The notes under the pieces: model-generated | The model's database searches: none | The model's input: only the letters and a program-made list of their open reading frames with translations | Told to the model about the DNA's origin: nothing | Translations under genes and position numbers: made by a program | Source: Aurelia coerulea | Taxonomy: Eukaryota > Cnidaria > Scyphozoa > Semaeostomeae > Ulmaridae | Reading direction: 5' to 3' | Length of the DNA stretch: 64,000 nt | Assembly: GCA_039566865.1 (NCBI GenBank) | Contig: CM076953.1 | Location: forward strand, 5,146,001-5,210,000 | Shown here: one piece after another, positions 1,458 through 44,069 of the stretch | Layout of the letters: each line of letters begins with the position of its first letter | How positions within the stretch are numbered: the first letter of the stretch is position 1

Positions 1458-1458
1458 C

Positions 1459-1847
1459 CCAGGGGGTCTACTTAGTACTATGACCACCCGGGGATGTGCC
1501 TGCCAATAGGGTGTCATTTTCGGCGGAAAATTCCGGGACAGGATTATACCTTTTGCACCTTTATTCCAGGACCGGTGTGTCCTTTAGAGCTACTTTTTCC
1601 AGGACAGATCAGATCATCATTTAAAAAGATACTCCAATTCATGAACTTATTGAAATAAATTATTAGTAGCATTAGCAATTAGCGAAAAGTACTTTTAGTA
1701 ATATCATTTTCAAAAGAACCATCATTTTCCCCGATCTTATTCCAGGACAGGTATTATGTTTTCAGAATTTTATTCCAGGACAGGGTCATAAAATTTTGTT
1801 CTGGCAGGCACATCCCCGTTGTTTTTCTCCAAGGTAGACCCCCCGGG
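1459..1847. mobile_element. G-capped inverted-repeat element, copy 1
   Basis: The ends are CCAGGGGGTCTAC at the left and GTAGACCCCCCGGG at the right. They are flanked by the direct repeat CCTATGCCC (1450-1458 and 1848-1856), a 9-bp target-site duplication. Subterminal GGGGATGTGCCTGCC is mirrored at the right. The interior repeats a unit around TATTCCAGGACAGGT several times. It is non-coding. A second copy, split by a later insertion, is at 41443-43895. Confidence 0.8.
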
Positions 1848-1856
1848 CCTATGCCC

Positions 1857-2329
1857 TTGTGGACTTTCCAAACAAAGTTTTTTTAGTTTATTTTTTTCCT
1901 AACCCAAATCAACTTTCTTCCCTCTTATAGAATTTTTCCCCTTATAGAATCAATTCCTCTAATTACAAAAGTAATTGGTTAAAATAACATTCTAAATATA
2001 ACTTAAAATACAAAGTAACTGGGAAAAATAACGTTTAAAGTCCAAATTAAAGTATCAAAATTAATTGTGTCCTTTAAAATCAACAACAAGCGTGACGAAA
2101 GATAAAGAAAAATCAACTTAAGGCTAAAAAGTACAAGTATGATAATTAAATTAAATTAAATCCGAAACACCACTTAAGTACCTTCGGAGTAATCTGATAT
2201 AAAAAACAAGTGAAAATAAAACAATAAAGAAAAATTAAGAATTTTCTTACAAAAAATACGTGTACCTTTGAAAAATGAACATTTACCCCATACATCATAT
2301 TAATCAAAGCCTTTACTTTCATTAGAATC
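1857..2329. other. AT-rich upstream region of the orphan ORF
   Basis: This is very AT-rich sequence with no recognisable gene or repeat. It would include any promoter of the ORF that starts at 2330, but no convincing motif was picked out. Confidence 0.4.
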
Positions 2330-2773
2330 ATGGCCAGTCCAGAAGAAAATGAGTGGGACACCGACAGGGGAATGAGACGTGGTTCCCCTGAACAGGAGAT
2401 CCTCTTTCTGCTCTTCGGGTCTGCAGCAGAAACTGCATACAATAACTTACCGGGTAGCACAAATTATTCAAGCCTTGGTCCAGATTTTTGGATAGCGGCA
2501 ACAAATGGAAGGGTGGGAAAGTACGATGACTGGGTAAAAAGGGGGATATTGGAAATGGCAACAGATATGACAGCGAAAATGTCAAAGGAAGAGGCTGAAA
2601 CGTTATGGAAACGGTTGGTAGTGCTTATCAGAAGGGGACTGAACGAACGCAAAGAAAACAAAATGGACCACAGGCATAAACATGTGGCGAAACATTGGGA
2701 AGAATTGTTAACCAAAGTAGTTCAGTGGATGGATGAAAATGCAATTGCACAGCCAGGAGAAGAGCAAGTTTAG
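2330..2773 (+). CDS. Orphan 147-aa hydrophilic protein (hypothetical)
   Basis: I do not recognise this protein. It is an uninterrupted 147-codon frame that starts MASPEENEWDTDRG. It contains a central aromatic and glycine segment (residues about 45-70, with GPDFWIAATNGRVGKYDDW), followed by a charged, probably helical half rich in Lys, Arg, Glu and Trp (residues about 80-135). No signal peptide or membrane segment is visible. The lack of low-complexity sequence and the balanced composition argue for real coding, either a lineage-specific gene or a domesticated or relict transposon ORF. An intron upstream or downstream cannot be excluded. The overlapping minus-strand frames look like shadows. 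Confidence 0.45.
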   Translation: MASPEENEWDTDRGMRRGSPEQEILFLLFGSAAETAYNNLPGSTNYSSLGPDFWIAATNGRVGKYDDWVKRGILEMATDMTAKMSKEEAETLWKRLVVLIRRGLNERKENKMDHRHKHVAKHWEELLTKVVQWMDENAIAQPGEEQV

Positions 2774-3089
2774 ACTTTATTTTAATTACCAAAGGATGTT
2801 TTTTAGTATGGATATAATCTTTCATGTCACCTAAAAGGAACATTTCTATTTTTTATCCATTCCATATTCCCTTTTTTGAGTTTCAAACAAATGATTTGCG
2901 GTAAATAATCCTAAAAGGAATCGACATAGTTAAAAGCTGGCCCGGGCCAAGTTAAAAATATAATCTATTGTATTCAACAACTTTGACGCCTGCAGTTTCA
3001 TTGTGTGGCGAAGGAAACAATGGGTTTGTGGGCGTTTCTTGAGCCTATTTATAGCAGCTTGTCGATATAGCTATGTCTATTCCCTTTAA

Positions 3090-3970
3090 GGTTACTGTAA
3101 CTGTTCAGACGACAAATTTTCGATTTTTCGCTTTTGTCATAATCTGATGGTATAAGTATTTGAGGACTGTTTAAACCAACTCACTTCCAGAAATAGTCAC
3201 AATTACTTAGAAATTTGAGCATTTCAAAAGGAGCAATCATGTTTCTCAAAAATTGCGGGAATATACATTAGGGGATTAAAGTAAACTCACTTGACCTCTC
3301 AGCTATGTTCATGACATCCCGTGCTGCTGTGTTATTGACATAATGCTTTACCGATACCGCACTTAAGCCTCGTTGCTTGACCTTTCATGCATAATCGTAT
3401 TTCCCGCAATTTTTGCTTCATTTTGATAAAAGCCTGATTTCTCGAAACAGGATTCCTGAGTACTGGTGGGTAATAAAAAATCTTTGTGTACCCAACAGGC
3501 CAATCGAATCGCTTGAAACTTGGCACACAGGGTCACAAAGCATATAACTACGAAACCGTGTCAGCGATTTGTGATAGATCCACTGGTCCGATTTTTACAG
3601 GGGTCTGAGAGTTAAAAAAGACATTTAAGACATTTACATTTATTTAAAATGATATCATTTCAAGAAAATACCTTTTATCAAAAATTCGTGACACGGTTTT
3701 GCAGTTCAGGGCCTTAAGTCTTTGGTAAATAGATAGTCGTGGTCCAACGATTATCATTGGGGTACACAAAGATTTTTTCGCAAGGGTGGTCGATTTTGCC
3801 TTAAATCTAGAATAAATCATTCGTGATTTTATTGAATCAACTGAATATATTTTTATGATATTCTACGTTTAATTCTGCGTCGAATGATGCATAAGTTTGT
3901 TTGGTATATTTTGACGAACGACCGTGGTAAACGGAGTTTCTTAATCGCCGCCTGAACGGTTACAGTAACC
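3090..3970. mobile_element. TTAA-flanked inverted-repeat element (881 bp)
   Basis: The left end GGTTACTGTAACTGTTCAG and the right end CTGAACGGTTACAGTAACC are inverted copies. They are flanked by TTAA at 3086-3089 and 3971-3974. TTAA targets are typical of piggyBac and Kolobok elements. The interior has no transposase reading frame, so this is a non-autonomous copy. Confidence 0.8.
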
Positions 3971-4132
3971 TTAAGATAGCCTTAAATAACGGACTCATCG
4001 TAATACGCAACTCAAACGCAACATTGGACACTGTAATCTATGGAAAGAAACTGTTAAAATTTGTTACCAGGGAGACAATTTGACAATAGCGAAATATCCA
4101 TGTCCTAACACCCTTGCTTAAACACCGTCATA

Positions 4133-4662
4133 CCGGGTGCGCCAAAATAAACTATGCACGTTTGGCAGGCCATAATAAAACGTACACTGGACCGATTTTG
4201 AACATTCATGACTTAATAGTTAGCAGGAAGCCTGAATTAGATACCAGGATTTTTTGCAATTTTTTTCATTTTCAGTTTTTAGAGCTAGAAGCGAGTTTCC
4301 TAAAATTTTAGTTTTCGAAAAGCACTGAAAACGATCAAAAACATCGATCAATTTTTCCAAAGAATCGACATGAATGAGCAAAGAAAGAACTTGTTCATGG
4401 TGATTTGCGATTAAAAAATCGACCAATTGCAATCTGCTGTACGAGAGTTCGTACTGAACCCCAAAATCCCCCTTGAAACGTTTTCTCTTTGTTCATCCAT
4501 GTTGGATCTTTTAAAATTTGATCGATGTTTTTTAATCGTTTCCAATGTTTTCGAAAAAGAACATTTTAAGAAACTCGCTCCTGTCATAAATCTTCAAAAT
4601 CGGTCCAATGTACGATTTATTGTGGCCCGCCAAACGTGCATAGTTTATTTTGGCGCACCCGG
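4133..4662. mobile_element. TA-flanked MITE, CCGGGTGCGCC ends
   Basis: The terminal inverted repeats are long (CCGGGTGCGCCAAAATAAAC and about 40 bp more) and are flanked by TA at 4131-4132 and 4663-4664. It is 530 bp and non-coding. The TA target fits Tc1/mariner-type mobilisation. Elements at 27512, 47824, 54792 and 56033 share the CCGGGTG start or a variant of it. Confidence 0.8.
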
Positions 4663-4664
4663 TA

Positions 4665-5353
4665 TATACAGAGAAGTCTGTTAACTCCTATCTCGTAAAA
4701 GGGCACCAACCACGTTTTGCCACGATAAACCATTTGAGATCATAATGCGTTTCGTCGGACACTCGTCAGTTCGGTCCGTGCATAGAACAAATAGCAGACG
4801 AATGTGCAGGCCCGTCGGGACGAGATTCATATTGGGGGGGGGGGCTGAGACTTGTTGTAAGCCTTACAAAGCCTTACATTCATTTTCATTTTTCATTATT
4901 TCCAATGGCATTGCAATTAAAAACAAGGGTTGGGGGGGCTTGCTCCCGGGAAAACTTTTCATGACCACGCTCTTTAGATCGTTGGAAAGCGCCCCATTTT
5001 TGAAGAATTTGCCATTTAAAGAAGCAAAGGATTATGAATGATGGGGGTCTTTCCAGGAAAGTTTTAAAGATAGGACTTCAATTTCTCGAGGATATAGATT
5101 AATTTTGAATTGCATAATAATATGAAAGTGCTAGCTTGATACATTATGGTAACTTCTTCAAATACAGATCAGTTTGAATCTTCATTTCCAACAGCTTGGC
5201 TTTCACAGCCCTTTCCCGTACGTAAGTGAATGAGCTTCAGCAAATTATTTGGGGGGCTGAAGCCCCCCCCCCAGCCCGCCCGGTTCCAACGGGCCTGGTG
5301 TGCAACAAAACGCCTTTTTGTTCATTCAATGTTGCTATTTATTGCAGTTACTG
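4665..5353. other. No gene seen; G- and C-runs
   Basis: This intergenic sequence has runs of G near 4836-4846 and C near 5263-5272. No coding region was recognised. Confidence 0.4.
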
Positions 5354-5362
5354 GTAACTTAC

Positions 5363-5687
5363 CCCGGGGGGGGGGGGGTACTTGACTTAAATTTGTACGG
5401 GGGTGTGCCCACGAAAAAATTTTTTTTTACCCTGCTCCAGAATTTTTCGCTCAAAATGATAACCTGTTCTAGAAAAAGTTGATGAAAAGTATGCGCAAAA
5501 ATATGAAATTTGACCGAAAAACGACCCGATCTAGCAGAATATTCCCCTTTAACATGTTTTGACAACCTGCTCTAGAAAAATTGCCGCATTTTGATACCCT
5601 GTGCTAGAAAAAATTGGTGAAAACGATACCCTTAAAAACGGCACATCCCCGTCGGACAAATATACTAAGTACCCCCCCCCCCCCCGG
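5363..5687. mobile_element. G-capped inverted-repeat element
   Basis: It starts CCCGGGGG and a G-run, then TACTTGAC, and ends AAGTACCCC with a C-run and CCGG. The 9-bp direct repeat GTAACTTAC flanks it (5354-5362 and 5688-5696). Subterminal GGGGGTGTGCC is mirrored by GGCACATCCCC. The interior repeats a unit around ATACCCTGCTCTAGAAAAA. It is non-coding. Confidence 0.8.
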
Positions 5688-5989
5688 GTAACTTACACTC
5701 CGCTTACACTAACTTATTTCTTTTCTTTCAGGCTTTAAGATTAACTCGTTTTTCTCTTGCAGAATTCAACAGTTTTCTCTCTAGTTACAGGTTTATTTTG
5801 GCTGTTGTTCTTTTACAGGAGTTAGCAATCTTCTTTCTGCAGATCACGGTGTTTTGTTGCGTTTATATAGGTTTAGTACGATGAGTCCGTTATTTAAGAA
5901 TGAAAACTGTTAAATCCTGCTAGAGAAGCAACACATTTTTAATGTGAAACCCTGAAAGGAGAGAAAATAAGTTAATAGCTGCAATAAAA

Positions 5990-6700
5990 AGCTACGTGCA
6001 ATTAGTCCGGTAGCAGAAGGGGGGGTAGTACCACCAAACGAGGTAATTTGTGAGACCAAGTGATTTTGGTCAATTTTGGGGCGTAGAATTCGAATATCGA
6101 TGTTCTTTTTGTGGGGGAGGGGCCGTTTTTGAGATATGGGGGTAAATGCCCCCAAAATTGAAGGAAAATGTGTTATTGTTAAGACTCTCGATGTACCCTT
6201 TAAAAGTTCATTTTTAGCTGTAGAACATTGTTAATGGCCCCATCTAGCTCATAAAAGGTACTTTCGAGGTTTCGGATCATTCTGGGGTAACCCTGCCCCC
6301 AAATGGGGGCAACAAAGCAAGATGATTCAAAATTCACTAAAAGTACCTTACCATACCAATTCAGGGGTGTAGAACCCGAATTTCGATGTTATTTTGATGG
6401 GAGAGTAACTGTTTTTGAAATATAGGGGCAAATGCCCCAAACAGGGGTCAAAGGTCAAAATCTTTTGGTAAAGTTTGATGTTTGTCACCCTAATTAAATC
6501 ACAAATCTTACTATCATATTCGTACTAAAATGCTGGTCCATAGCGCTGTTTAGGTTTAAAGTCATCATATTCCTCTCCGAGGCAATGCTGTCCTAAATGG
6601 GAGCAACCAAGGAAGTCGATTGCTATTTCACTAACAACACATGATCTTATCAATTTCCAGTTATTCTTGGGTGTAGAATCTGAGTTTCGATGTTATGCAG
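5990..6700. repeat. Tandem units of about 290 bp
   Basis: A unit recurs near 6080, 6364 and 6664. It contains GGTGTAGAAcCcGAaTTTCG, then GATGTTATTTTG, GTTTTTGAAATATAGGGG and AAATGCCCC. The copies are diverged. An inverted copy lies at about 8890-9000. Confidence 0.6.
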
Positions 6701-9155
6701 CAATATCTCTTCCGGTAGAAATATTTTGCATTTTACCCTCACACCATTGATGAACTTGCCACTTTGGTCGAAAAACGGGAGGAGGAAAACAGGGAGACAA
6801 ATCTTAAATGCAGCCGGGACTTCACTGCTCAAGAGCGCGAAGAACATCTTATATTTTGGATATGGCTGCTAACATCAACGGTATCATGAGAACGCCAGAC
6901 ACATTTATAGAACAGTATTTCTTGTGACGAAGATAAATTTGGCATATGAACTCCCGATATTCGTATTCCTGCTGACATTAACAAATTTTTAGAAATAATG
7001 GAAGGAAAGAAATAATTTCAAGGCCGATGAAACATGTATGGCTTGAAACCAGTCATTAACTCATTGGACGCTCACTTTTATGGCATGAGATATGTCCTGT
7101 ATAAAGGCCAAGAATGGAACATCGATTGACGTGTGAAAGAAATTGAGCATGATCACGAAAAAACAAATGCCACAGAAGCTTTCCTCCACGACGAAAAAGC
7201 ATTTGACTCGTGAAATTGTCTGTTGACTCCACAGAATATGGGGCATAGGAACTAAAAAGCTATTGTTTATATCCTTGACAAGGTGCATAACCCTCCCTTC
7301 TCTAACGAGCCCCCTCTCGGGTTTCCAAAATTACACCAGCCTCCCGTGTATTCTTTGCAAGAGCTTTTACGGTATTCTTCGTAAAGGAAAACAGTTTTGG
7401 TGGATACATATGAAAGGTACATTTCTTGTTCGCTGTTTAGGGAACAGTCAAGCAAGATATAATATCTGACCAGAGCTGGATGGATTGGCACTTCTTTTAG
7501 GTAGAAGTTTGAAAGAAAGCAGCAGTATTCATCAAACAAAGTGATGAAAAATATATTTAGGAGATTGAAAGAATATGAAAATGGCATTGACTTGTCTCTC
7601 CTTCCACCATACCAGACAGCAAATTTTGTTACAAAATGTGGTGAAATGCATCAAATCCTGATCGCAAGGTTATCCAGGCCAATCAGGCTGATTACCAGAT
7701 ATAATGATAAAATTGGACAGAGGAAGTGTATTCAGAACAGATACATTGGCATTGGCATAAGAGTCGGGTGGCTGGGGTGTGCTGCATAGCCCCTCTAATC
7801 AGGCAAAAGTTATTTCACTTCAGGCGCGATTCAAGCACTATTAAAGCAACGAAGCCATCATATTGGGCACTATCCATGAAATAAGCCCATCTAAACATTA
7901 GGCTGCACCTAAGTCCAGGAAAGGATAGCAGAGTTGCTGATTAATGCCAGCAATGGAAGAGATGGTCGAGAATAGTGACAATATCTTAAGTTCTGATTTG
8001 TTAGCCCATTGCTAGTTCCTTTGGATTTAGGATTTGCATCCGAATCTTTTGCTCACCGATCGGCAGGTAATTGCATCCGAATTTGACATGTAAGGAAGGA
8101 TTCCAAACGGAAATGTCTCAATGAAAGATGCAAATCACAATAATGCAGCCGAAAGTGCAAACGGGCACACCACCATTGTTATCCTTTACAAGAGAGCATC
8201 ATGAATAGATTCGCGTAATTTCATTGGATGATTTAATGGTAAGCCATCGTCCTATTGTCTTTGAAGTGTGGATTTGGATGCGAATTCGAAGTCCAAGGGA
8301 ACTGGAAATTGGCCATAAATGTAAAAAATAGAGTAACATGAACTTGCGGTAATTACAGAATTTGTTTATTACTGAACTGGTCTATTAACGATCCATTCAA
8401 CATGTTGCAACTGAGCCTCTTTATAGGATCATGGCTGAGGGCACCATCCAATGTTTCCCTTGATTGAAAGGAACCATAGGTAGGTATGAAGTTTGAACCG
8501 TAAACACAGTAGGACCAAACAAGGCTCTCTGTTGCAAATGTTACTGTCGGAAATTCATAGGATGAGGCACTTCGACCATGAAGTGGACACAGATAATCTC
8601 TCTCATTGCCCCCAAATTCGGGGTAACATTTCGGGGTTAGAAGAAGGTAACAACCTGAAAAAATAGATTAAGCTATTGCTATTCATGAATTTACTGATCC
8701 CAAATTCCATTTCCCATAGCTGAAGATCAAAATGTTTATGCTTTGAGTGAGGCGTTCGACAACAACAAACTTTACCCTATTCTTAAGGCAGTCGCCGCTA
8801 TATTTGAAAAGCTCCCTTTTCCTGTTAAAATAACATCTTTCTATGAGAATCATTACAAGATTTGAAATGAAAAGCACCAAAGGTTACCAAAAGAGTTTGA
8901 CCTTTGACCCCTATTTGGGGGCATTTGCCCCTATATTTCATAAACTGTTCCTCTCCCATCAAAATAACATCGAAATTCGGGTTCTACACCCCTGAATTGG
9001 TATGGTAAGGTACTTTTAGGGAATTTTGAATCATCTTGCTTTGTTGCCCCCATTTGGGGCAGGGTTACCCCAGAATGATCCGAAACCTCGAAAATACCTT
9101 TTATGAGCTAGATGGGGCCATTATCAATGTTCTAAAGCTAAAAATGAACTTTTAA
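6185..9155. mobile_element. Large element with inverted arms of about 280 bp
   Basis: The block at about 6190-6475 (ending in AAATGCCCC, GGGGTCAAAGGTCA) reappears in reverse complement at about 8880-9155, with few changes. The arms enclose about 2.4 kb. The core has short plus-strand frames (for example 7541-7789) that match no family I know. It is probably a degenerate inverted-repeat transposon or foldback. The boundaries are approximate. Confidence 0.55.
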
Positions 9156-9159
9156 AAAT

Positions 9160-9445
9160 CCTTTCCGGGTATCGTTTTCGCCTCTTTTTTCTAACGCCGG
9201 GTATCAAAAGAAGGCAATTTTTCTAAAGCCGGTTGTCAAACATGTTATTTCATTGTTTTTCGACGAAGTTTTACGTTTAGGGGTATGCTTTTTGCCGATT
9301 TTTACGTTTTGGGATATGCGTTTCGCCGATTTCTTCTAAAGCCGGCTATCATTTCGATGGAAAATTTCTAAAGCCGGGTGAACATTTTTTTTCTTGGAGT
9401 GCACCCCCTCCGTACAATTGAAAGTGAAGTACCCCTCCCCCCGGG
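9160..9445. repeat. Truncated G-capped element, CTAAAGCCGGGTATC units
   Basis: The right end is intact in form (CCCTCCGTAC, then GAAGTACCCCTCCCCCCGGGG). The interior repeats TTTCTAAAGCCGGGTATC several times. The left end is missing where it abuts the inverted arm ending near 9155. No target duplication can be read. Confidence 0.6.
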
Positions 9446-9790
9446 GTTTCTTATTAGCTGAAATCGGTTACCCCATTCAGATTTCACCAGGTGCTTTCTC
9501 GAGAAAATCCCTTCGAGACACCTTTCAAAACGAGCTAAGAAAGATTAGTGATTACGACCAAATTTCCCTAGTTGTACCTTCCAGCAATGACATGAACACC
9601 GAACACGCTTTGGCCTCGTATGAATAACTTATGCAGAGGGATTCCGTTCTCATTATTGTTACGAAGGAAAACCAAGGAGATTTACTCGTTGTTTTTCACT
9701 CGCTTTTGTGGCTGCAAAGTCAGAGGATCACACCACTGCGCCACAACACCTTCAGTTTCGTCCCCGCTAAGCGTCATTTCGACGCTAACT

Positions 9791-10113
9791 CCCGGGGGGG
9801 TTACTTGACCAGGTTTTGGTCGGGGACGTGCCATCGAAGCTTCAAAAACATACCCGTTCCTTATACCAATTTTCCGAAAAAGCATACCCGACTTTAAACC
9901 AATTTTCCGAAAAAGTACACCCGACCTTATACCAATTTTCCGAAAATGTATATCCGATCTTATACTTTAACCAAAATCGTGAAAATCGATACCGTTCCTT
10001 GTACCAAAATCGTGAAAATCGATACCGTTCCTTATACCAAAATCGCGAAAATCGATACCCTTCCCGATGGCACGTCCCCGTACCCAAAATATGTGAAGTA
10101 CCCCCCCCCCGGG
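9791..10113. mobile_element. G-capped element with two minisatellite blocks
   Basis: It starts CCCGGGGGGGTTACTTGACC and ends GAAGTACCCC with a C-run and GGG. It is flanked by CGCTAACT (9783-9790 and 10114-10121). Subterminal GGGGACGTGCCATCG is mirrored by CGATGGCACGTCCCC. The interior holds about four units of CGATACCAATTTTCCGAAAAAGC type, then three units of TACCAAAATCGTGAAAATCG. Long open frames across it on both strands are products of the tandem repeats, not genes. Confidence 0.8.
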
Positions 10114-10121
10114 CGCTAACT

Positions 10122-11029
10122 TTCAGACCCCCCCCCCCCACCCCACCCTCCAAACTTAGCGTCGGTCTACAACAACAGCAACAACAACAACAACAACTCT
10201 CTTTGAGAAACCTTTCGACTTAGGCCATTTGAAAAACTAGAGCTGGCGTTGGAAAAGGCCCTCCGGTAAGGTATTTTCTTCTCAGATATTTTCTTTCATT
10301 TTCTTTTCTTCTATTTTCTAACCCTACCTAACCCTTACCCTCACATTGTAATCTGTCATATGAAAATCGATGGTAAAAAATTTTTTATCGTCATTTTGGC
10401 TGTGTGACCACTCGCCACCCGCCACACCACAGTCCCGCCACCCATTGGTATTAAACGTCGAAATGACGCTAAGCGAGGACGAAATGGATTTATGACCAAC
10501 CGCCTGCTTGCTTTATGCAGACGAGACCCACAAGATATCTTACACGAAGACGAGGAGGCAGGCATGCCAGAAGAATTGATTGAGTGAGCTCTAGTCTAGA
10601 AGTAAATATTTGGTAATAAGTCATCGGCCTACTCATGATGAAGAGAAAACTGACCTATTTTATATGCGCCTCAGTCAGGCAGAGAATCCAGAGAGTGAGA
10701 CCCATAATAGCCCAGGGAAACATTTTAACAATGAACCCCTTCCTTTTCATACAGGGTATATTAAGATAGGAACTAGGAAAGTTGGGCATCATTTTGAAAA
10801 TATCATACCCTCAAAAAACGGCACCAAAATCATCAATTAGAGAGAAGAGGACAAAAACTTTCCCATCAACCATCATGGCAGCAATGATAAATAACTAAAA
10901 AGGCATTTGCCCGTCACAACGGACTAACACAACTGCGTCCCCCTCTCTACCTGCAGAATCCTTGCAAAGCAGACCTGGCTGGGTAAAATTCACAAAATAT
11001 CTCCCATAACTCAGGCAAAGTATCACAGT
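10122..11029. other. No gene; CAA microsatellite
   Basis: A short CAA/CAG run sits at about 10170-10198. A segment at about 10457-10485 is the reverse complement of about 9755-9783, so this inverted pair brackets the G-capped element. Nothing else was recognised. Confidence 0.45.
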
Positions 11030-11240
11030 TCAGTTCAGTTCAGTTTCATTTTAAAATTCCACAACATACAAAAATCCATTAAACAAACTAACCTGAAAGT
11101 AAAATTATAACAAGTTACAAATACGACAAAATAATTGATATAAATAATTACCATCAACTAGAAATTTTTATGGAGAGGAATTTCTTAAGGAGGAGCTCTC
11201 TCAATGGGTAAACTAATCGAAGAGAGAGCACCCCCTGTTC
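11030..11240 (-). mobile_element. LINE 3' end (same family as 56568-57713)
   Basis: The GTTCA repeat at 11032-11045, followed by TTTCATTTTAAAATT, matches in reverse complement the tail at about 57675-57713. The GGGGGTGCTCTCTC segment at about 11225 matches 57485-57500. This is a 5'-truncated retrotransposon tail inserted in the minus orientation. Confidence 0.7.
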
Positions 11241-11819
11241 TAAAATCCTATTAACTTTTGAAAATCTTCAAAGAATGTTTGGAGGTTGATATAGCCAAAA
11301 AGCAAAATTATGGAAAAATTTAGTCTAAGTGACGAGACCAGTCCCAAGGCATACCAAAGGCCCCCACCAAATGCACACCAGAGCATTAAATGCCCAAGAG
11401 AATCCGAAAGGCAGTGCAAGAGTTTAATACCCAGCCACACCTCAAGACAAGCCGATCAGAGACACCACAAACTAGCCCATAACCTCTGGGCAGGCAAGCT
11501 GGAATGGAGTTACCAAACTCCCAAGTGGAGTTACCCCATCACTTGAGTATTAGGAAGGCCTACCAGGCTAGGTTGTAGGGTTGGCACAGGGCAGGGACAG
11601 ATTAACTGTGCATTCTACAGTATTTCTTGTAAATACTGATGAAGGGTAATGCCCCGCGCAATGCCCCATATGTATAGTTTCTATTTAAATCCTGGCATTT
11701 TAGTTTCTCAAATGCAAAAATTTACGTCACTCTCAAGACTGGGAGTAATTTGCACCTCCAGATTCCAATTAAAATGCTTTTGCAGGACTTAAAGAAGAGG
11801 ATGCACGGGTTCAAACAAG
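11241..11819. other. Upstream region of the fucosyltransferase gene
   Basis: No gene was recognised. It should contain the promoter and 5' UTR of the downstream gene, and a 5' untranslated exon is possible. A short frame at 11750-11938 overlaps the true start in another frame and is rejected. Confidence 0.4.
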
Positions 11820-13088
11820 ATGAACTACAGAAGAAGAAGAACCAAGGTACTCCTCTGCTTAGTTGCATTCGTTGCAGGTACTCTCATAATTTACAACTAT
11901 TACACAGAATTGATAGACAGAAATGTTGTAGAGCCTGAACAATATTATAGTGGTGAAGATGTGGAATGGCAAGCTCAATGCAATAATAGAACAAAGGTTA
12001 TTTTACTTTATACAACTTGGTTTCGGCGGAAAGTATGGAAATACACATTCACTGGCACGCTGCTTCATACTCATTTTGAGGAATGCCCCGAGCATAAGAA
12101 CTGCCTTGCAACATATAACAGGACCCGTCTGCAAAAGGCACATGCTGTTGTATTTCATGGCAGTGATATAGAACTAGAAAGGAATCATTATTATAAAGCA
12201 CACAAGTTGATAAAATTGAGGCAAATGGTACCACAGCAACAAAAATGGATTTACTTAAGCCACGAGAAACCGTTGGCTGACTCAAGCATTTACGCACCGT
12301 ATGATGGCCTGTTCAACTGGACAGCTACTTTTAGCAGAAGATCAAATGTCTTCATACCGTATGTATCATACACCAAATCAATGAATCCGCATGGAGAGAA
12401 ACGCAATTTCGCAGAAGGAAAAACAAAACAAGTTGCTTGGGCTGTTAGCAATTGCCATCTGATGCGTGAGGAATATGTATTAGAGCTGCAAAAATATATA
12501 AATGTCACTGTTTATGGTGACTGCAGAAGGTATTTTACAAAGCAAGATGATTGTCAGCATTTCGATACAGCATGCCAAAACAAAATATCTAAATATAAAT
12601 TCTACTTAGCATTCGAAAATGCTTTTTGCCAGGATTATGTCACAGAGAAATATTGGGAGAGAATTGAACAGAATACAGTGCCTGTTGTGATGGGCGCAAA
12701 TTATGATAAAGGGCTTGTTATCCCTGGCTCATACATAGATGCAGGTGACTTTGACTCAATAAAAGAACTTGCAAATTATCTGAAATATCTGGATGCAAAT
12801 GATGCTGAGTATAACAGATATTTTGAATACAAATCTCAGTATCGTGTTAGCTCTACAAGCATATTCTGTGGTATTTGCAACAAGCTACATTCAGAAGAAG
12901 CAAATAGATTTACGCAGATTAGATTGTCAAAAGAGTATAGCAGGAAACAGTACTGTGGACTTTATAAATATAAGGAAGACAAGTTTTGGAAGCAAATTTT
13001 AGATTCACGTAATCAAAACAGTGCATTTGGTACATTTTGGGCAAAGTCAAAATTGTGGTTTAGAAAGATAAAAGGGGCTTTGATTTGA
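11820..13088 (+). CDS. GT10 alpha-(1,3)-fucosyltransferase-like protein
   Basis: This enzyme transfers fucose from GDP-fucose to glycan chains in the Golgi lumen. It is a 422-aa type II membrane protein: a short basic tail (NYRRRRTK), a membrane anchor at residues about 10-28, a stem, then the GT10 catalytic domain. Visible GT10 hallmarks are FNWTATF with FIPYVSY (near residue 165), KQVAWAVSNC, VYGDC, and the signature FYLAFENAFCQDYVTEKYW (from residue 261), followed by VPVVMG and IDAGDF. The first ATG precedes the basic tail and anchor, so it is the natural start. The frame is uninterrupted and apparently a single exon. Family assignment is firm; the exact linkage specificity cannot be told. 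A 9-bp-duplication MITE starts 46 bp after the stop and probably supplies 3' UTR sequence. Confidence 0.93.
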   Translation: MNYRRRRTKVLLCLVAFVAGTLIIYNYYTELIDRNVVEPEQYYSGEDVEWQAQCNNRTKVILLYTTWFRRKVWKYTFTGTLLHTHFEECPEHKNCLATYNRTRLQKAHAVVFHGSDIELERNHYYKAHKLIKLRQMVPQQQKWIYLSHEKPLADSSIYAPYDGLFNWTATFSRRSNVFIPYVSYTKSMNPHGEKRNFAEGKTKQVAWAVSNCHLMREEYVLELQKYINVTVYGDCRRYFTKQDDCQHFDTACQNKISKYKFYLAFENAFCQDYVTEKYWERIEQNTVPVVMGANYDKGLVIPGSYIDAGDFDSIKELANYLKYLDANDAEYNRYFEYKSQYRVSSTSIFCGICNKLHSEEANRFTQIRLSKEYSRKQYCGLYKYKEDKFWKQILDSRNQNSAFGTFWAKSKLWFRKIKGALI

Positions 13089-13134
13089 AAAGTAAACAAG
13101 TTGAAAAGATGGCCTTGGAAATTGACTGTTATGC

Positions 13135-13989
13135 AGCATACTGTAGGTTCCAAATCCTTAACTCGGCGTAAAAAGGTGGGTGTAAAATTGAATGACCTGT
13201 TTCTTCTGATTGAATGGCTTGAAAGAAACTTTAGCCACTTACCTATAATTCTACCATTGGACTTTATGTTGAATATTTTTCGAAAATACAGCCTATCTTA
13301 CTTTTAAACTCATTCGAGGATGTGATGTCATCAGTGGCGGATTTAGGGGGGCAAGTGGGGGCAATTACCCCCCCCCCCTTCATGATGAAAACTCAGCTTG
13401 GCGCCCCTCTTTTGGCGAGAAAAGCGCCCCTCTTCCTGACTCTAACGCATGATTTTTCAACTTTTTCGATTTAAATATGGGGGAAAGATATAAATCAAGG
13501 CGTTATTTAGCAGTGAATCAAAGAATTTTCTTTGAAAAGCGCCCAAAAAATTTTCGCGCGCCTTCGGCGCGCTCAATTTCTATCGATTGTTTGGCGCCCA
13601 CTTTGCAAATTGCCCCCCCCCTTCAACTTCGGGCTGGATCCGCCCCTGGATGTCATCAAATTTCTAACTCATAAACCAGGTGAGTGACAGACATTTGCTT
13701 GATGCCATATTGCAGTCATTCATAAACTAATGGCCTTCTTCGAAATTATTTCATGTTGCATCAAACAGTTTAGAAATTACGACGGTTTCAAGTTTTTTTT
13801 TGGAATTTTTTCTTCAATTCTTGAAAAAGAAGAAAAACACTCTAATTCTGAAAATATTGAAGATTTCCAGGAATTCCAATTATGGTAGAATTATAGAGTA
13901 ATAGCTAAAGTTTCTTTGAAATCATTCAGTTCAAAGAAGTAGGTCACTGAATTTTACATAGCCTTTTTAAAGATTTGGAACCGTATGCT
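13135..13989. mobile_element. 9-bp-TSD MITE, copy 1 (interrupted)
   Basis: The ends AGCATActgtAGGTTCCAAATC and GATTTGGAACCGTATGCT are inverted. They are flanked by CTGTTATGC at 13126-13134 and 13990-13998. It belongs to the seven-copy family of about 520 bp. It is longer here because a 317-bp hAT-like element sits inside at 13332-13648. Confidence 0.85.
13332..13648. mobile_element. hAT-like MITE nested in the 9-bp-TSD MITE
   Basis: The ends are CAGTGGCGGATTTAG and CTGGATCCGCCCCTG, flanked by the 8-bp duplication GATGTCAT (13324-13331 and 13649-13656). The 8-bp target and CAGTG-type ends fit hAT. It is non-coding and contains C-runs. Confidence 0.85.
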
Positions 13990-14320
13990 CTGTTATGCTA
14001 GCAAGGAACTGATTTGTAGATACTGTACATACTCTCACTCTGATGGCAGTGTACGGCTCCTTGGGGGGGGGGGGGTTGCATTACTTGTGAATGGATGGGG
14101 GTCTGCCACCTACCCACTCCCAGTTATCAAAATTGTACCTACTTGTACCTACTTTTATGATGAATTTTGACAAGAACTTCTCATCATTTTAATTTACTGT
14201 ATTTCTTAGATCTCTTCTTGTTCTTAGGCAAATAATTTTGCAAAACGACATCAATATTTGGAATCTACATGACCAATGTAGAACGTTGAAGAGTGGCAAA
14301 CAAACCAAATCATTTGCACT

Positions 14321-14565
14321 ACCGGTTGAGCCAGAAAAAAGTTCCCGCTTCCGACAGGTCAGGATAGATCACACACTTGACCAATTTTGGAATATTTTCG
14401 ATCTAATATTTTGTCAATATCCTGTATTATTTCTTTGATTGCTGTTTCTCAACCTTTTTGGGGTGTCTGCAGTCGAAAAAATTTCGAGAAATTTGAAATT
14501 GGTCCAGTGTATGATCTATCCTGGCCTGTCGGAAGTGGGAACTTTTCTCTGGCTCACTTGGTTGA
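14321..14565. mobile_element. Degenerate MITE, CCGGTTGAGCCAG ends
   Basis: CCGGTTGAGCCAGAAAAAAG and the following 50 bp are inverted in CTTTTCTCTGGCTCACTTGG at the right. The arms are about 65 bp around a short core. The ends resemble the element at 20714-21150. No convincing target duplication remains. Confidence 0.6.
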
Positions 14566-14653
14566 TTGTAACAAAAATCAGGACCGCCAAGTAGGGGGAA
14601 GGTGGGTAAAAGGTCCTGGGCCCCGTAAAGATATCGTACCACAGAAATTGATT

Positions 14654-15000
14654 ATTATTGCTGTAAAACGTCTTTATATAAACTTGTTATGGCCATCTAT
14701 CTTCCTTAAAACATAGTCATAAGAAAACAGTTTTCTTATGGCTATGCGTAAAAGTTCGTGCCCTCCTTAATTATTGCTGTAAAATCTCTTTACATCAACC
14801 GTTTATGGCCATCTATCTTCCTTAAAACATAGTCATAAGAAAACAGTTTTCTTATGGCTATGCGTAAAAGTTCGTGCCCTCCTTAATTATTGCTGTAAAA
14901 TCTCTTTACATCAACCGTTTATGCCATCTATCTGCCTTAAAACATAGTCATAAGAAAACAGTCTTCTCATTGGCTATGCGTAAAAGTTCGTGCCCACCTT
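14654..15000. repeat. Three tandem 116-bp units, each with a hairpin
   Basis: Units start at 14654, 14770 and 14886 and are nearly identical. Each has a strong internal palindrome, for example 14712-14746, where CATAGTCATAAGAAAAC is mirrored by GTTTTCTTATGGCTATG around a single A. Confidence 0.9.
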
Positions 15001-15211
15001 TGAAAGTTAGTCACCTCGTAAAAAGCGAGTCTTTAATCTATTTATCGTAAATAACGTTTTCTTAATAACTTTGTCATAGAATATCTCCACAATTGTTCTT
15101 AACTAAGTTTCTTCAAAAGGTCGTTTCCCTCATTCTCCAAGAGTATGAAGGGCGTGGTCTCCGAAAATTTTATGATTTATGCAGGGTGGCCGGATAATTT
15201 TGGTGAGTTGA

Positions 15212-16062
15212 AGGCCGTAGGACAAGGACAGATTTAGTAATACAATAGCATGGATTATTACTTTTGTTGACACCTGAATTCAAAGCGATAATAGCGATTG
15301 CAGACAAAGGAAATTCCCTCAACCAGTAATTTTCAAAGCAAACAAAGACGCAAAAGTTTCTCTGAAACCCAGGGAGCTAGCACGATTGTTGTACATTCCA
15401 GAAATTTTTTGAAGAGCATACATGGGCATAAATCAAAAGAAGAAGGAGATATCTACACAGCGACCGCGGGCATTTCATTTTTTGGTTCAGAAACTGAGCA
15501 GTGTACATTCCAGAAATTGTTTTAAAGAGCAAACATGGGCATAAATCAAAAGAAGAAGGAGATATCTACACAGCGACCGCGGGCATTTCATTTTTTGGTT
15601 CAGAAACTGAGCAGTGTACATTCCAGAAATTGTTTTAAAGAGCAAACATGGGCATAAATCAAAAGAAGAAGGAGATATCTACACACCGACCGCGGGCATT
15701 TCATATCTTTGGTTCAGAAGCTGAGCAGTAAGTGTTTTAAATACATCCAGAACATAAGGGAATTGAATCGCCCCCCAATCGGCTTTTGAATCTTTGAACC
15801 AAACAAATTAAATGCCCGTGGCAGATGTGTAGATACATCCTTCTTCTTTCGATAAATGCACATGTTTACTCATAGAAACAATTTTTGGAATGCAAATCGA
15901 GCGAGCTAGCTACCTGTGTTTCAGAGAAAATTCTACGGCTATGTTTGTTTTGAATTAATGGTAGAAAGGATTTCCTTTTTCTGCAATCGATAATCGCTTT
16001 AAATTGCGGTGTCAATCAAAAGCAACTCATGCTGTTGTCTTACAAAATCTGTCCTTGTTGGC
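15212..16062. mobile_element. Inverted-repeat element with three internal 113-bp repeats
   Basis: The block at about 15212-15480 (GTAGGACAAGGACAGATTT at its outer end) reappears inverted at about 15800-16062. Between the arms a unit of about 113 bp starting GTACATTCCAGAAATT occurs three times (15391, 15503, 15616). No transposase was seen. The boundaries are approximate. Confidence 0.7.
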
Positions 16063-16079
16063 CAGTAGTAGTTCCTGCC

Positions 16080-16832: not shown

Positions 16833-16950
16833 GGGCCCGGTTGTTCAAAACTGGTATTAGGCTAATACCGGATTAGGACTATGCAAATGACTACAGAATC
16901 ATGCCTTTAATCCAAGATTAGCGCTAATCGTGGTTTGAACAACCCAGCCC
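16833..16950. mobile_element. Short MITE, GGGCCCGGTTGTTCAAA ends
   Basis: GGGCCCGGTTGTTCAAAactgg is inverted in GGTTTGAACAACCCAGCCC. An inner pair of GGATTA and TAATCC-type motifs extends the symmetry. It is about 118 bp and non-coding. Confidence 0.7.
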
Positions 16951-17422
16951 AGGACGATTGAAAAGTGATACAGTAAAAAACCTGCAGTAAAAATCCTAGT
17001 GGATTAAGAAGTTCAAATTGTTTTATAAGAACCAATCCATTGTATTCATTGTTCAAGAACCCAGGCTGACTTGCAACATCGTAGGTTTTGACACACAAGT
17101 GCCTATTGTATACAGTAGAAGCTCTATTTCTATATAGTTCCGGGGACCATGCCCCCTTCAGTCACCAAAATCTCATAGTCATTGCAAGATTACAGTTCCA
17201 ATCGCTCTGTTCTTTCGAAAAATGTTTGGTTTCAAGTATTTTTCAATGAAAAGCTAGTTTCATGACCAAAAAACTGTTTCGTCCGCATATGTTTGTGAGT
17301 ACTTTAGTATCAATGTTACGAGTACCGTCCATATGAGAGTCAAGTAGAACTCTTGTTGCTTTCGGCTTATACTTGCAAAACGGATGCTTGAAAATTGTTC
17401 ATATGTTACAAACTTTCTAGCG

Positions 17423-17948
17423 AGCATAGGTTCCAAATCTTTAAAAAGGCGGATGTAAAATCGAGTGACCTATTTCTTTGAACTGACTTACTTCAAAGAA
17501 ACTTTAACTAATTCTCTATGTTTTTACCATTGGAAATTTCTGAAATCTTTAATATTTTCAGAGTTAGAATGTTTTTCTTCTTTTTCAAGAATTCAACAAA
17601 AAATTAAAAAAAAAACTTAAAACCATCGTAATTTCTAAACCGTTTGACGCAACATGAAGTAATTTCGAAGGAAACCATAGTTTATGAATGGCTACAATAT
17701 GGTATCAAGCAAAAGTCTGTCACTTTTCTGGTTTATGATCTAGAAATTTGATGACGTCACATCCTCAAATGAGTTGAAATGTAAGATACGCTGTAATTTC
17801 GAGAAATATTCAAAATTTCTGGAAATTCCAACGGTAGAATTATAGATAAGTATCTAAAGTTTCTTTCAAGCCATTCAATCCGAAGAAATAGGTCATTGAA
17901 TTTTACACCCACCTTTTTACGCTGAGTTAAAGATTTGGAACCTATGCT
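17423..17948. mobile_element. 9-bp-TSD MITE, copy 2 (526 bp, intact)
   Basis: The ends AGCATAGGTTCCAAATCTTT and AAAGATTTGGAACCTATGCT are perfect inverted repeats. They are flanked by TTTCTAGCG at 17414-17422 and 17949-17957. It contains TGACGTCA near 17752. It lies in the opposite orientation to copies 1, 6 and 7. Confidence 0.92.
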
Positions 17949-18089
17949 TTTCTAGCGTAACTGCTGGTATACATTTTGAAGGGAATGGGTTGTAGAGGAG
18001 AAAAGTTTAAAGCCCCCATTAAAATTAATTAATCAAACAGCTACAAGATAATTCTATAAGTTAACCTGATATCACTATAAATTCAGTCG

Positions 18090-19615: not shown

Positions 19616-19672
19616 GACTACTTAATTTAAAAGTGCTGCGAAATTTGAAAATACACTATGAATGCAAAATCA

Positions 19673-40777
<21,105 letters not shown>

Positions 40778-41433
40778 TCCATCTCCCTTGCATCTTTCTC
40801 TCTGTCCTAATTTCTGTTCTAGCGTCTTTTAGGCCCACTGCGTTGATGAATGGTGAAATGAATTGAATTGATAGGCATGCGCAATGATTCGATTTTTGCC
40901 AACACGACAGCGTCAAACACGCTGCGCAGTGGCACAAACGACACTTCACTGGCAAATGCCCAAACTGGAAATGACCAAACCAGGCAGGAACTGGTCCCCC
41001 ATGAAAGGGTGGTGTCAAGAACCTTCCGACAGAGGGGCTAGAGCTTTCCAACAGGGGGCTGAAATTGCTAGAAAATGTAGTTTTCATGCTTGACATGCCT
41101 CATTTTGCCAAATTTCCTCCGACAAGAACCCAAGATGAAATGGCCCATGTCATGGTCAAAGTTATCAAATAAAATCGGACAGGGGATCGGACAATCATGG
41201 AACATTGCATCGGACAATCATGGAACATTGCGGACATCTTTGTTTTGCACGAAATTTTGTGCGAAATTTTTGTTCGATACTACTACCTTAAGTGCGAGCG
41301 AAGCGAGTGACTGTCCGCAATGCTCCATGATACAATAGGGTATATTGTTAACTTGGCCAGGACTAGCTTTTAAACATGTCGGTTCCCTTGTATATTTTTG
41401 ATTGCTTGGTTGAGAGAAACACCCTCAGGGAGG
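40778..41433. other. Upstream region of the mannosidase gene
   Basis: No gene was recognised. It should include the mannosidase 5' UTR and promoter. A direct repeat, CGGACAATCATGGAACATTG, occurs at about 41189 and 41213. Confidence 0.4.
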
Positions 41434-42850
41434 GGATGTGCCCGGGGGTCTACTTAATACAATGACCACCCGGGGATGTGCCTGCCAATAGGGTGTCATT
41501 TTCGGCTGAAAATTCCGGGACAGGATTATACCTTTTGCACCATCATTCCGGGACCGGTATGTCCATTAGAGCTACTTTTTCCAGAACAGGTCAGATTATC
41601 ATAATCATTTAAAGTGCACATAAACCCAAAATTTTTTATTTCATTTTCCGATAGAACTCATCAAGAAATGCTATTCTACCCAAAAAAATTTTCCAAAATC
41701 ATTTTCCAAACTCGTTTTATAATGCATTTTGTCGAGCTTGGACTGTGGACACTACCGGGCACCTACGGCCTGGGAACTAGTGACGACTACTCAGGATGAC
41801 AAATGATCGAACGAATTGATCGCTGTCATAAACCAGTTGTTATGAGGCGTTCATATCGAAGCTTAGACGAAGTCAAAGTTCCAATAAAATGCACCAAAAA
41901 AGAGTTTGTTTGAGTCAGACCTCCTCACAGTCGTCTGTTGTAGGTTTATCGGCATGGATTGTTGGAATTGGTATGACGCCAATTTCATCTCTCGACCGCA
42001 CAAGGTGTCCTTTCCTCATTGGCGAGTGACATTTTTCGTCCAGCAGAGATGACGTAATTCTCCTGGGTAGCATTACCTTTTGAATGGAACAATTAGGATG
42101 TTTGAAAAGCATAAAGAATCCGCTTTCCAATGTTGTCAAATGTTAATTGGGTGTTCGTACAAAAATGTGGAGTCATTGTGATTTTAGTGTCAGCAGGTCA
42201 ATTTCGTTGACTGTTGTGATTCATTTACAGTTAGGCTTATGATCATGGAAGTTCTTTCAAAGGGGTTTTTAGAGAGAGTTTCCAAGGAGAAAAGTGTTTG
42301 AAAATACCAATAAAGATTTTAATAGAAATTATGTGATGTCCTATCGCCTGAAGAACGTGTTATTATGGAGGATGAAGCGGAAGGTTAGGAATTGGAAGCA
42401 GAGCATCTGTGCAGGTACGTAAACAAGATCAGTGAAAAATTAGGCCCGTTCTTAGTGGCGCCCCTTGGTGAATCTTGTTACTTGGCTTGACATTTTTTTA
42501 TGTTCCTTCTAAACAGAGTTCAGAGTGGTATTAGGTAAGGTTAGTTATGAGTTTCTAGTCATTTCAGTATGATTTTAAAAACCACATTCCATCAACTAAG
42601 ACTCTAAAATATACGCCTCGGACCTTCCTTGCGCCTCGGAGGAACTCTGAGCAACGGGAATCTTAGCATTACTAGCATTACCCTCCCTTGGTGTTTTTTG
42701 CTTATATCATTTCTGTTTCTCAGCATGAGTTTTCGAGTTTTCACTATTTGTTATCATTTTATCTTCTGCCTTATCAAAATTTTCGAGAATATAAACAATG
42801 CGTTCTGCTCACATGAAAATTTCAGATCGACCTGAAAAATCTGACCGACC

Positions 42851-43405
42851 TCAGAAACCCAACCTGAGTTTCATTTCGCCTGTGTCGTGTAAGCGTTCCA
42901 AGGGCATCGAAAGCAGACCGAAATGAGTGTCAAACTGACCAGCAACCAGCAACTCAGACCAGTTAAATCTTCTCAAGTAATCCTCGGGTTTAAAGTGTTT
43001 TGAGCACAAGCAAGATGCTGTCGAAGCTTCCCATTTGGCACGTTTTTGTTTCACGAACGCTATCCATTCACGTAGTCTCTCCTTTGCAGTTGTATTTTCT
43101 TTGCCATGAAACGGAATAGCATGCAATGTTATACCATTCTTTAAATCTGAAGTCACTGCAAAAATATCAAAATTTCCCTTTAGTTTCTGCTTGGAAATTT
43201 AAGGGAAACGGACAAGTTTATCTGGGAAATTGAAGGGAAACAGACATTTCCATTTCCTTCTTGGGAAATTATGGGGAAAGTGTCCGTTTCCCCAAAATTT
43301 CCCGAAATTTTGTCATTTTTTGCAGTGAGTATTTCCACAATTAGCAGCCACGTATCTGTTTACCAGATTTGCGTTGTTTCTTGCCTTCCTCCCTTCTGCA
43401 ACCAT
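42851..43405 (-). pseudogene. THAP-domain ORF disrupted by a MITE
   Basis: THAP domains are C2CH zinc fingers that bind DNA, and several transposase families carry one. From the ATG at 43403-43405 the minus strand reads MVAEGRKARNN, then VNRYVAANCGNT. At that point a 174-bp element interrupts it. Reading resumes with SDLKNGITLHAIPFHGKE and KERLREWIAFVKQKR, then CLCSKHFKPEDY, the Cys and His of the finger. The frame is continuous if the insert and one AGT copy are ignored. The first zinc Cys appears as Tyr (YVAANC). After about residue 100 the frame ends without a transposase core. It is therefore a decayed fragment. Confidence 0.75.
43154..43327. mobile_element. 174-bp MITE with CACTGCAAAAA ends inside the THAP ORF
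   Basis: CACTGCAAAAATATCAAAATTT at the left is inverted at the right (TGTCATTTTTTGCAGTG). The 3-bp duplication AGT lies at 43151-43153 and 43328-43330. CACTG ends with a 3-bp target suggest an EnSpm/CACTA-type element. The interior repeats GGAAACGGACA-type motifs. Confidence 0.85.
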
Positions 43406-44069
43406 CACTGGCACTAAAATTGACTGCGAAATCACTTAGGCTACACTGAGACCTGAGTGTGTATACCTGAGTCGACGTCACATCCGCTATCGCCCCAGAC
43501 TCCAGACTGGTCAAAATAGCCCGGCAGTGTCCACAAAAAATTGTCCAAAAACGCGACTTTAGTGGGGCATAACTCCGGAACCACGCATCGGAATTCAATT
43601 CGGTTTACGGTTTTCAACTCAGCTCAACGCCCTCTATCATAATCAAGGATAAAACATTTTGGGTTTAGGTGCACTTTAAAGAAACGCTTCAATTTATGAA
43701 ATCATTAAATGAAAATTCTACTAGCAAAAGCAATTAGTGAAAAGTATACTCTCATTTTCTTCAGAACTATCAGTTTTCCAAGTCTTATTCCAGGACAGGT
43801 ATTATGTCTTCAGAATTTTATTCCAGGACAGGGTCATAAAATTTTGTTCCGGCAGGCACATCCCCGTTGTTTTTCTCCAAGGTAGACCCCCGGGGGGATG
43901 TGCCACCCTAAAGATGTTATTACTTTTTCATTGTTTTGTCCCCAAGTTTAGGATATTTCTTTTAAGGGCCCTGGTTTCTCACTTCAGAAATGGAGATCGT
44001 CCATTGTCTCCATATTTCTTGGGTTACAGAAATTCTTTGTTGAGCTATTGAATTTAAATTTCAATGGCA

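What the first reader, a model, noticed from the sequence alone, without database searches (positions are those of the whole stretch)
1459..43895. G-capped elements with shared ends but unrelated tandem-repeat interiors
Six elements (1459-1847, 5363-5687, 9160-9445, 9791-10113, 29191-29545, and 41443-43895 minus its insert) share an architecture. Each has CCCGGGGG-type caps followed by TACTT or TCTAC and a subterminal GGGGAYGTGCC-type motif mirrored at the other end. Five of the six have an 8-10-bp target duplication. The interior is always a short tandem array, but its unit differs: TATTCCAGGACAGGT, CCTGCTCTAGAAAAA, CTAAAGCCGGGTATC, ACCAATTTTCCGAAAA with CAAAATCGTGAAAATCG, and ACCCATAAATCCGAAAA. 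The ends seem conserved for mobilisation while the interior is replaced or diverges quickly. The 9-bp target recalls Mutator-type elements. The G-runs could form quadruplexes. I know of no named family with this layout.
Basis: partly seen in the sequence, partly recalled or inferred. Interest (0 to 1): 0.75.

Follow-up and report, generated by a model that had tools for sequence, protein, structure and literature searches.

The report
Miniature transposons with shared repeat frame
The six elements belong to one very abundant family of tiny non-coding jumping DNA pieces in what is probably a jellyfish-type genome; their inner repeats are not unrelated but variants of one repeat, in which a short word seems to change at several places together.

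Summary
The elements are TIR miniature transposons: CCCGGGG...CCCCGGG caps, TACTT/TCTAC, inverted GGGGNNGTGCC motifs. The five complete window elements each have an exact 8-bp target duplication. Of 55 catalogued elements 36 have an exact duplication and 40 at most one mismatch under a rigid cap rule. One end pattern occurs 2122 times in the 574-Mb genome, reversed control 0. Five paralogous empty sites were found, one for the window's first element.

The interiors are related. Seven subfamilies (A-G) carry arrays of one ~32-bp frame, (G)ATACCC-word-GAAAA, in one orientation; 11 of 21 pairwise comparisons beat all but at most 3 of 500 shuffles. Subfamilies differ in a 6-10-bp word. Between A and F two word positions changed identically in 4 of 4 colinear units (0 of 20000 permutations). 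The inner words of the two ends also agree within subfamilies (2 of 5040 permutations).

Best reading: MITEs of an unidentified 8-bp-TSD transposase, whose array words are probably binding sites of one family-specific protein (inferred). No autonomous partner was found in the pieces read.

The parts
1458..1847 (-). Element E1, subfamily C (word TGTCCTGG); TSD CCTATGCC at 1450-1457 and 1848-1855; 390 bp. Strand in this table = orientation of the array
   Evidence: 39 other scored genome copies at 94-99% identity; paralogous empty site
5363..5688 (+). Element E2, subfamily A (word TG[CT]TCTAG); TSD TAACTTAC at 5355-5362 and 5689-5696
9160..9448 (-). Element E3, subfamily F (word GGCTTTAG), left end lost; homologous with E2
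   Evidence: two more copies in L013 and L028
9791..10113 (+). Element E4, subfamily B (AATTTTCCG and AAAATCGTG words); TSD CGCTAACT at 9783-9790 and 10114-10121
29188..29544 (+). Element E5, subfamily E (word ATAAATCCGG, 32-bp units); TSD GGTGAAAA at 29180-29187 and 29545-29552; left cap ACTGGGG
41441..43894 (-). Element E6, subfamily C, split by a nested insert (about 41605-43681); TSD GGGATGTG at 41433-41440 and 43895-43902
51131..51189 (+). decayed fragment of a subfamily-C-like end
   Evidence: (78% over 59 bp to E6)

Best explanation
These are non-autonomous cut-and-paste DNA transposons (MITEs, about 150-580 bp) of one family with at least seven subfamilies (A-G). A transposase supplied in trans recognises the caps plus the inverted subterminal GGGGNNGTGCC-type motif and inserts with an 8-bp stagger (the stagger is shown by TSDs and empty sites; the transposase is not identified). 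The interior descends from an ancestral tandem array of a ~32-bp unit, (G)ATACCC-word-GAAAA. The words and the two end words are most likely binding sites of one family-specific DNA-binding protein (the transposase or a helper), so that when its specificity shifts the sites shift together and a new subfamily arises (inferred). My confidence is about 0.95 for the MITE part, 0.9 for common descent of the arrays and 0.4 for the binding-site part.
For: Exact 8-bp TSDs in the five complete window elements and in 36 of 55 catalogued elements by a rigid rule, 40 of 55 with at most one mismatch; displaced controls 0-2 of 32. Five paralogous empty sites crossing the junction with one copy of the 8 bp, exact in two and with one mismatch in three. 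Young copies: mean pairwise identity 89.5-96.6% in five subfamilies. Common frame: 11 of 21 subfamily pairs beat all but at most 3 of 500 shuffles in one orientation, opposite orientation at the shuffle level. Coordinated change: A consensus versus F (E3), 2 of 21 columns with the same substitution in 4 of 4 units, 0 of 20000 permutations, with further copies mostly in agreement. End words match left to right in 36 of 49 variable positions over seven subfamilies, 2 of 5040 permutations as high. Precedent for family-specific motif arrays read by a TE protein: PMC5735166 (passages).
Against: No protein and no autonomous partner were found. Deletion variants of about 153 and 163 bp (L032, L054; my count from the printed letters) sit between TSD-like flanks with few units left, so a full array is not needed for mobility. 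Array-wide word change can also come from neutral homogenisation. Ten of 21 interior pairs were not clearly above shuffles. The A/F test used four units; a further, degenerate unit was left out because it does not align, and F has two extra units with another word. One A word (L049) carries the F base at one of the two positions. End words of A and G agree poorly between the two ends (6 and 7 of 11 bases). Subfamilies E and G mostly fail the rigid TSD rule (2 of 6 and 0 of 2 within one mismatch).
Confidence: 0.55

Rival explanations
1. Same MITE family, but the words have no function: the arrays are homogenised by unequal exchange, slippage or gene conversion, and each subfamily is founded by one master copy.
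For: Arrays shrink: L032 and L054 are internally deleted; subfamilies are tight, as from single masters. Neutral homogenisation of tandem repeats is well known (recalled).
Against: A and F arrays stay colinear, with shared irregular spacers and a unit-specific base kept while two word positions changed in all four aligned units; the inner words of the two distant ends also agree within most subfamilies.
Confidence: 0.38
2. One reading: conserved ends that pick up unrelated interiors.
For: By eye the units look different, and the central parts of C and D hold non-repeat sequence.
Against: E2/E3 colinear homology, E 8e-21; shared frame across subfamilies in one orientation; common junction G-R-Y-ACCC, 7-8 bases, GGCAC in the consensus of A to E.
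Confidence: 0.03
3. Mutator-superfamily foldback-like elements, moved by a MULE transposase.
For: MULE domains exist in the genome (105 matches among 150 scored of 224 candidates); Tetris, a foldback assigned to Mutator by its authors, has internal tandem repeats and 8-10 bp TSDs (passages).
Against: TIRs are short and the repeats lie inside, not in long TIRs; 4 of 105 MULE places inspected over 5-6 kb had no caps.
Confidence: 0.15
4. P- or Merlin-superfamily MITEs; both superfamilies are recalled to make about 8-bp TSDs.
For: P (150 matches from 150 scored of 172 candidates, best 1.9e-48) and Merlin (99 matches from 109 candidates) are abundant, with repeated groups of equal score and open frame.
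Against: 0.9-kb 3' flank pieces of 8 P places showed no caps; in the two P groups where paired copies diverged the boundary had no caps. Merlin flanks could not be read.
Confidence: 0.4

Closest known systems
MITEs in general (non-autonomous TIR elements with 8-bp TSDs)
   Same: small, non-coding, TIRs, fixed-length TSD, high copy number, young homogeneous subfamilies
   Different: the interior is an array of a frame-plus-word unit, with the word differing by subfamily and, between A and F, changed at the aligned units together
VANDAL MULEs and VANC proteins of Arabidopsis (PMC5735166; passages read)
   Same: family-specific short motifs in same-orientation tandem arrays in non-coding DNA; related groups differ by one base in many motifs (YAGTATTAC against YAGTATTAT)
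   Different: plant elements with a known binding protein; here animal MITEs and no protein known
Foldback elements: Tetris (PMC4079207; passages read) and Galileo (as cited in those passages)
   Same: non-autonomous, internal tandem repeats, 8-10 bp TSDs in Tetris; Galileo repeats hold extra transposase sites according to that paper
   Different: there the repeats (about 220 bp in Tetris) lie inside the TIRs; here TIRs are short and a ~32-bp unit fills the centre in one orientation
CMITEs of Acropora corals (PMC2872659; text parts 1-3 of 4 read)
   Same: cnidarian MITEs; relation between ends and interior is unusual
   Different: about 100 bp, TTAA TSD, piggyBac-related, conserved interior with variable ends (the reverse)
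Tandem-repeat elements of bivalves and Drosophila (Helentrons/DINE-1; search listing only)
   Same: mobile element carrying a short tandem array
   Different: Helentrons are rolling-circle elements (listing) without such TSDs (recalled)

Membership tests
MITE (TIR, cut-and-paste) | terminal inverted repeats | tested here: met
   caps, TACTT/TCTAC/TAACTT and GTGC motif at both ends in the complete window elements and five subfamily consensus sequences
MITE (TIR, cut-and-paste) | fixed-length target duplication and empty sites | tested here: met
   8 bp, 36 of 55 exact and 40 of 55 with at most one mismatch; five paralogous empty sites
MITE (TIR, cut-and-paste) | small, non-coding, many copies | tested here: met
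   catalogue 252-578 bp; no ORF of 140 aa or more listed inside the six elements; 2122 end matches
MITE (TIR, cut-and-paste) | autonomous partner with the same ends | tested here: inconclusive
   not found; pieces read beside 20 hAT, 4 MULE and 8 P places plus second copies of six P groups; Merlin not read, KDZ search did not complete
Mutator/MULE | TSD of about 8-10 bp, mostly 9 (recalled; 8-10 also in PMC4079207 passages) | tested here: inconclusive
   8 bp, at the low edge of the range
Mutator/MULE | MULE transposase between the same TIRs | tested here: inconclusive
   4 of 105 listed places read, no caps
hAT | TIR of CAGNG type and TSD nTnnnnAn (recalled) | tested here: not met
   TIR CCCGGGG; TSD bias strongest at positions 3 (T 37 of 74) and 6 (A 37 of 74); T at position 2 in 25 of 74
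hAT | hAT transposase with the same TIR | tested here: inconclusive
   1.4 kb downstream of 20 of 150 scored places; no such cap as an end of the hAT element seen
P superfamily | 8-bp TSD (recalled) | tested here: met
P superfamily | P transposase with the same TIR | tested here: inconclusive
   8 of 150 scored places, one 0.9-kb piece each, no caps; two groups with a boundary reached, none with caps
Merlin | Merlin transposase with the same TIR | not tested
CMITE | TTAA TSD | tested here: not met
   8-bp TSD of varied sequence; paper text
VANC-type motif system (works like) | family-specific short motifs in same-orientation arrays, co-varying between groups | tested here: met
   (co-variation tested between A and F only)
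VANC-type motif system (works like) | a TE-encoded protein binds the motifs | not testable with these tools
   no protein candidate; needs binding assays

The most novel reading that the evidence does not exclude
The array words and the end words are a subfamily-specific recognition code: one TE-encoded protein of animal DNA transposons reads all of them, and subfamilies split by whole-array switches of the word, as with VANC motifs in plants, to escape cross-use or host silencing.
Probability: 0.2. Interest if true: 0.75.

Novelty: new variant of a known kind. Interest (0 to 1): 0.45.

Why it matters
A large set of young copies of one MITE family, split into subfamilies whose arrays and ends seem to change in step, gives a natural record of how a transposon's DNA recognition sites evolve. 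If a protein reads the words, it would be an animal counterpart of the plant VANC/VANDAL system and would make coevolution of binding protein and binding sites directly testable from sequence. If not, it is a clear case of concerted evolution inside 300-bp mobile arrays. The family also warns that short-unit arrays that look unrelated can share a frame.

Tried and rejected
Unrelated captured interiors: rejected. Nine-bp duplication: rejected, 8 bp. CMITE membership: rejected. Chance: rejected. Two matches of the end pattern in bacterial MAG contigs and two of a recalled coral motif in viral contigs were read: no caps, not this family. Pattern scans of viral contigs for the ends: 0. Paper search for the end motifs: 11 papers, judged from the listing (titles and abstract starts) to be unrelated; none opened. 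Other paper searches listed no paper that I recognised as this family. Search for an end with a foreign interior: tails NS and Y (one search listed only the first places of 249) and ends in held loci gave MITE subfamilies, deletion variants and the new subfamily G, no coding element. On contig C1 from 0 to 18.7 Mb, the stretch covered by the listing, the listings have 10 transposase places (7 hAT, 3 P, my count); none has a listed end within 5 kb (compared by eye; nearest about 5.0 kb). Regex frame counts were weak for subfamily C. Rfam: no match in the window.
Full report
What is there. The window (64 kb, 38% GC) is C11:5146001-5210000 of a 574-Mb, 294-contig assembly. It is animal DNA: an open frame at 11820-13088 is a fucosyltransferase that matches an unnamed protein at 86%, a named one of Rhopilema esculentum at 53% and one of Acropora millepora at 37%, so the host is probably a medusozoan cnidarian (inference). 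The six elements are real. Setting the ends at CCC|GGGG and CCCC|GGG gives an exact 8-bp duplication in the five complete ones; the third has lost its left end.

More than chance. The pattern GGGGTACTTN{8,30}CGGGGAYGTGCC has 1054 forward and 1068 reverse matches in the genome and none when read backwards. These are ends, not elements: an element can give 0, 1 or 2. Subfamilies C, E and F have other end sequences and are not in this count; the DNA searches with E1 (C) and E5 (E) had 668 and 708 first-look candidates, 40 scored each. From the loci then held and the window I catalogued the 55 distinct elements that an end rule could delimit; for example it delimited 5 of the 16 E copies fetched. 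Of the 55, 36 have an exact 8-bp duplication and 40 at most one mismatch under a rigid cap rule: A 9 and 9 of 11, B 7 and 7 of 9, C 4 and 5 of 7, D 15 and 17 of 20, E 1 and 2 of 6, G 0 and 0 of 2. The misses include elements with altered caps, such as E1 itself, and damaged or misdelimited ones. L040 and L041 are counted twice although their flanks are identical in inverse order, so they look like one insertion that was duplicated. In the earlier 32-element set, 21 pass at the predicted place against 0-2 at nine displaced places. The duplications are varied, with a weak palindromic bias (T at position 3 in 37 of 74, A at position 6 in 37 of 74; 37 sequences read on both strands).

Empty sites. 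Joining flanks without one TSD copy and comparing with the DNA held gave paralogous sites without the element for five insertions: B in L013 against L052 (94.6%), D in L015 against L030 (92%), C in L008 against the window at 52061-51920 (78%), B in L026 against the window at 21036-20918 (77%) and E1 against L030 (85%). The single copy of the 8 bp is exact in the first two and has one mismatch in the other three. These are repeats that were hit in one copy and not in another, not orthologous alleles.

Subfamilies. A (E2), B (E4), C (E1, E6), D (20 catalogued, none in the window), E (E5), F (E3 plus L013 and L028) and G (L093, L094). Mean pairwise identities are 94.7% (A, n 11), 92.0% (B, 9), 96.6% (C, 6), 96.1% (D, 20) and 89.5% (E, 5), so activity is recent. 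For the C and E consensus one long row each was left out.

The interior. In one orientation the subfamilies repeat a frame of about 32 bp: (G)ATACCC, a word, GAAAA. Words: A TG[CT]TCTAG, F GGCTTTAG, D TGTCCCGG, C TGTCCTGG, G AATCCCAG, E ATAAATCCGG, B AATTTTCCG and AAAATCGTG. The frame is degenerate: the words were read off by eye, and C, D and G also hold non-repeat stretches. Local alignment of interiors: 11 of 21 subfamily pairs score above all but at most 3 of 500 dinucleotide shuffles; two more are exceeded by 8-9 shuffles, and eight are weaker or at the shuffle level (B-C, C-F and F-G show nothing); the opposite orientation stays at 16-25, the shuffle means being 18.6-22. A is linked to each of the other six. 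A window-only version gave 6 of 18 cross-subfamily pairs with 0 of 300 shuffles as high and 2 more with 2-3, subfamily C being linked through E2 alone. Direct homology of E2 and E3 is plain (68.5%, E 8e-21).

Coordinated change. A and F arrays are colinear, sharing irregular spacers. In four aligned units (A consensus against E3) two word positions carry the same substitution in 4 of 4 (T/G and C/T); 0 of 20000 within-base permutations reach two such columns. A further, degenerate unit does not align and was left out; F has two more units with another word. Further copies: in A, 10 of 11 copies gave all four words and one (L049) gave two, one of these with the F base at one position; in F, E3 gave four words, L013 three and L028 two by the regex; the first units of L013 and L028, which the regex missed, read GGCTTAAG and GGCTTTAG in the printed letters. 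The test rejects independent substitution; it does not by itself separate selection from gene conversion. The inner words of the two ends also agree within most subfamilies (matching bases of 11: B and C 11, D and E 10, F 9, G 7, A 6), 36 of 49 variable positions, with 2 of 5040 permutations as high.

How it works. Shown: insertion with an 8-bp stagger, inverted ends, high copy number, recent spread, array shrinkage (L032 and L054, about 153 and 163 bp by my count, with an exact and an imperfect TSD-like flank pair). Inferred: a transposase in trans recognises caps and subterminal motifs. Inferred and less sure: the words are further sites for the same or a companion protein, which would explain why they change together. 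The precedent is VANC in Arabidopsis, where the target motifs form same-orientation tandem arrays and related groups differ by one base in many motifs (PMC5735166, passages). The main rival is neutral homogenisation; the mobile short variants show that a full array is not needed.

The partner. hAT (150 matches, 150 scored of 418), MULE (105, 150 of 224), P (150, 150 of 172) and Merlin (99, 109 of 109) domains are present. The KDZ search did not complete. Pieces read: 1.4 kb downstream of 20 hAT places (one holds the end of a neighbouring G element facing away, one an internal C fragment), 5-6 kb at 4 MULE places, 0.9 kb at 8 P places plus second copies for six of these groups and a further 0.9 kb for one. 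In none did I see the caps as the element's own end, but most pieces do not reach a proven end. Two P groups diverged between copies inside the pieces, at boundaries without caps. The partner remains open, and my leaning to P or Merlin rests on the 8-bp duplication, a recalled feature.

Known or new. Searches of the paper library listed no description of this family that I recognised; most subscription journals and Repbase are not covered, so an existing Repbase entry is possible. As a kind it is a MITE family; what is unusual is the frame-plus-word array that seems to switch in step.

Noticed in passing
window 41605-43681: A 2.08-kb insert with ends GTGCAC..TAAACCCAAAA (32-bp arms, 94%) is nested in E6; no ORF of 140 aa or more listed there; probably another DNA element.
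   Followed up: partly
window 6199-6487 and 8868-9156: Inverted pair, 94.5% over 290 bp; its right arm stops just before the truncated side of E3 (9160), so this structure may have removed E3's left end.
   Followed up: no
window 13131-13989, 17422-17948, 23897-24410, 37756-37971, 38409-38920, 51539-52065, 53148-53668: Another interspersed repeat of about 520 bp with partly self-complementary ends, several copies in this window; element L008 has an empty site in it.
   Followed up: no
window 14654-15000, 15390-15729, 46618-46910: Three longer tandem arrays (116 bp x3, 113 bp x3, 152 bp x1.9), apparently unrelated to the finding.
   Followed up: no
G000 contigs C5, C9, C17, C21, C22: 91 of the 99 Merlin-type matches and about four fifths of the 105 MULE matches lie on five contigs (my counts of the listings), whereas the MITE copies scored lie on C1-C21 and none on C22; these contigs may hold transposon-rich blocks.
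   Followed up: no
window 2330-2773: Open frame of 147 aa with no Pfam match at E 0.001.
   Followed up: no
window 29830-29985 and 61024-60860: A second G-rich repeat pair, 84% identical.
   Followed up: no
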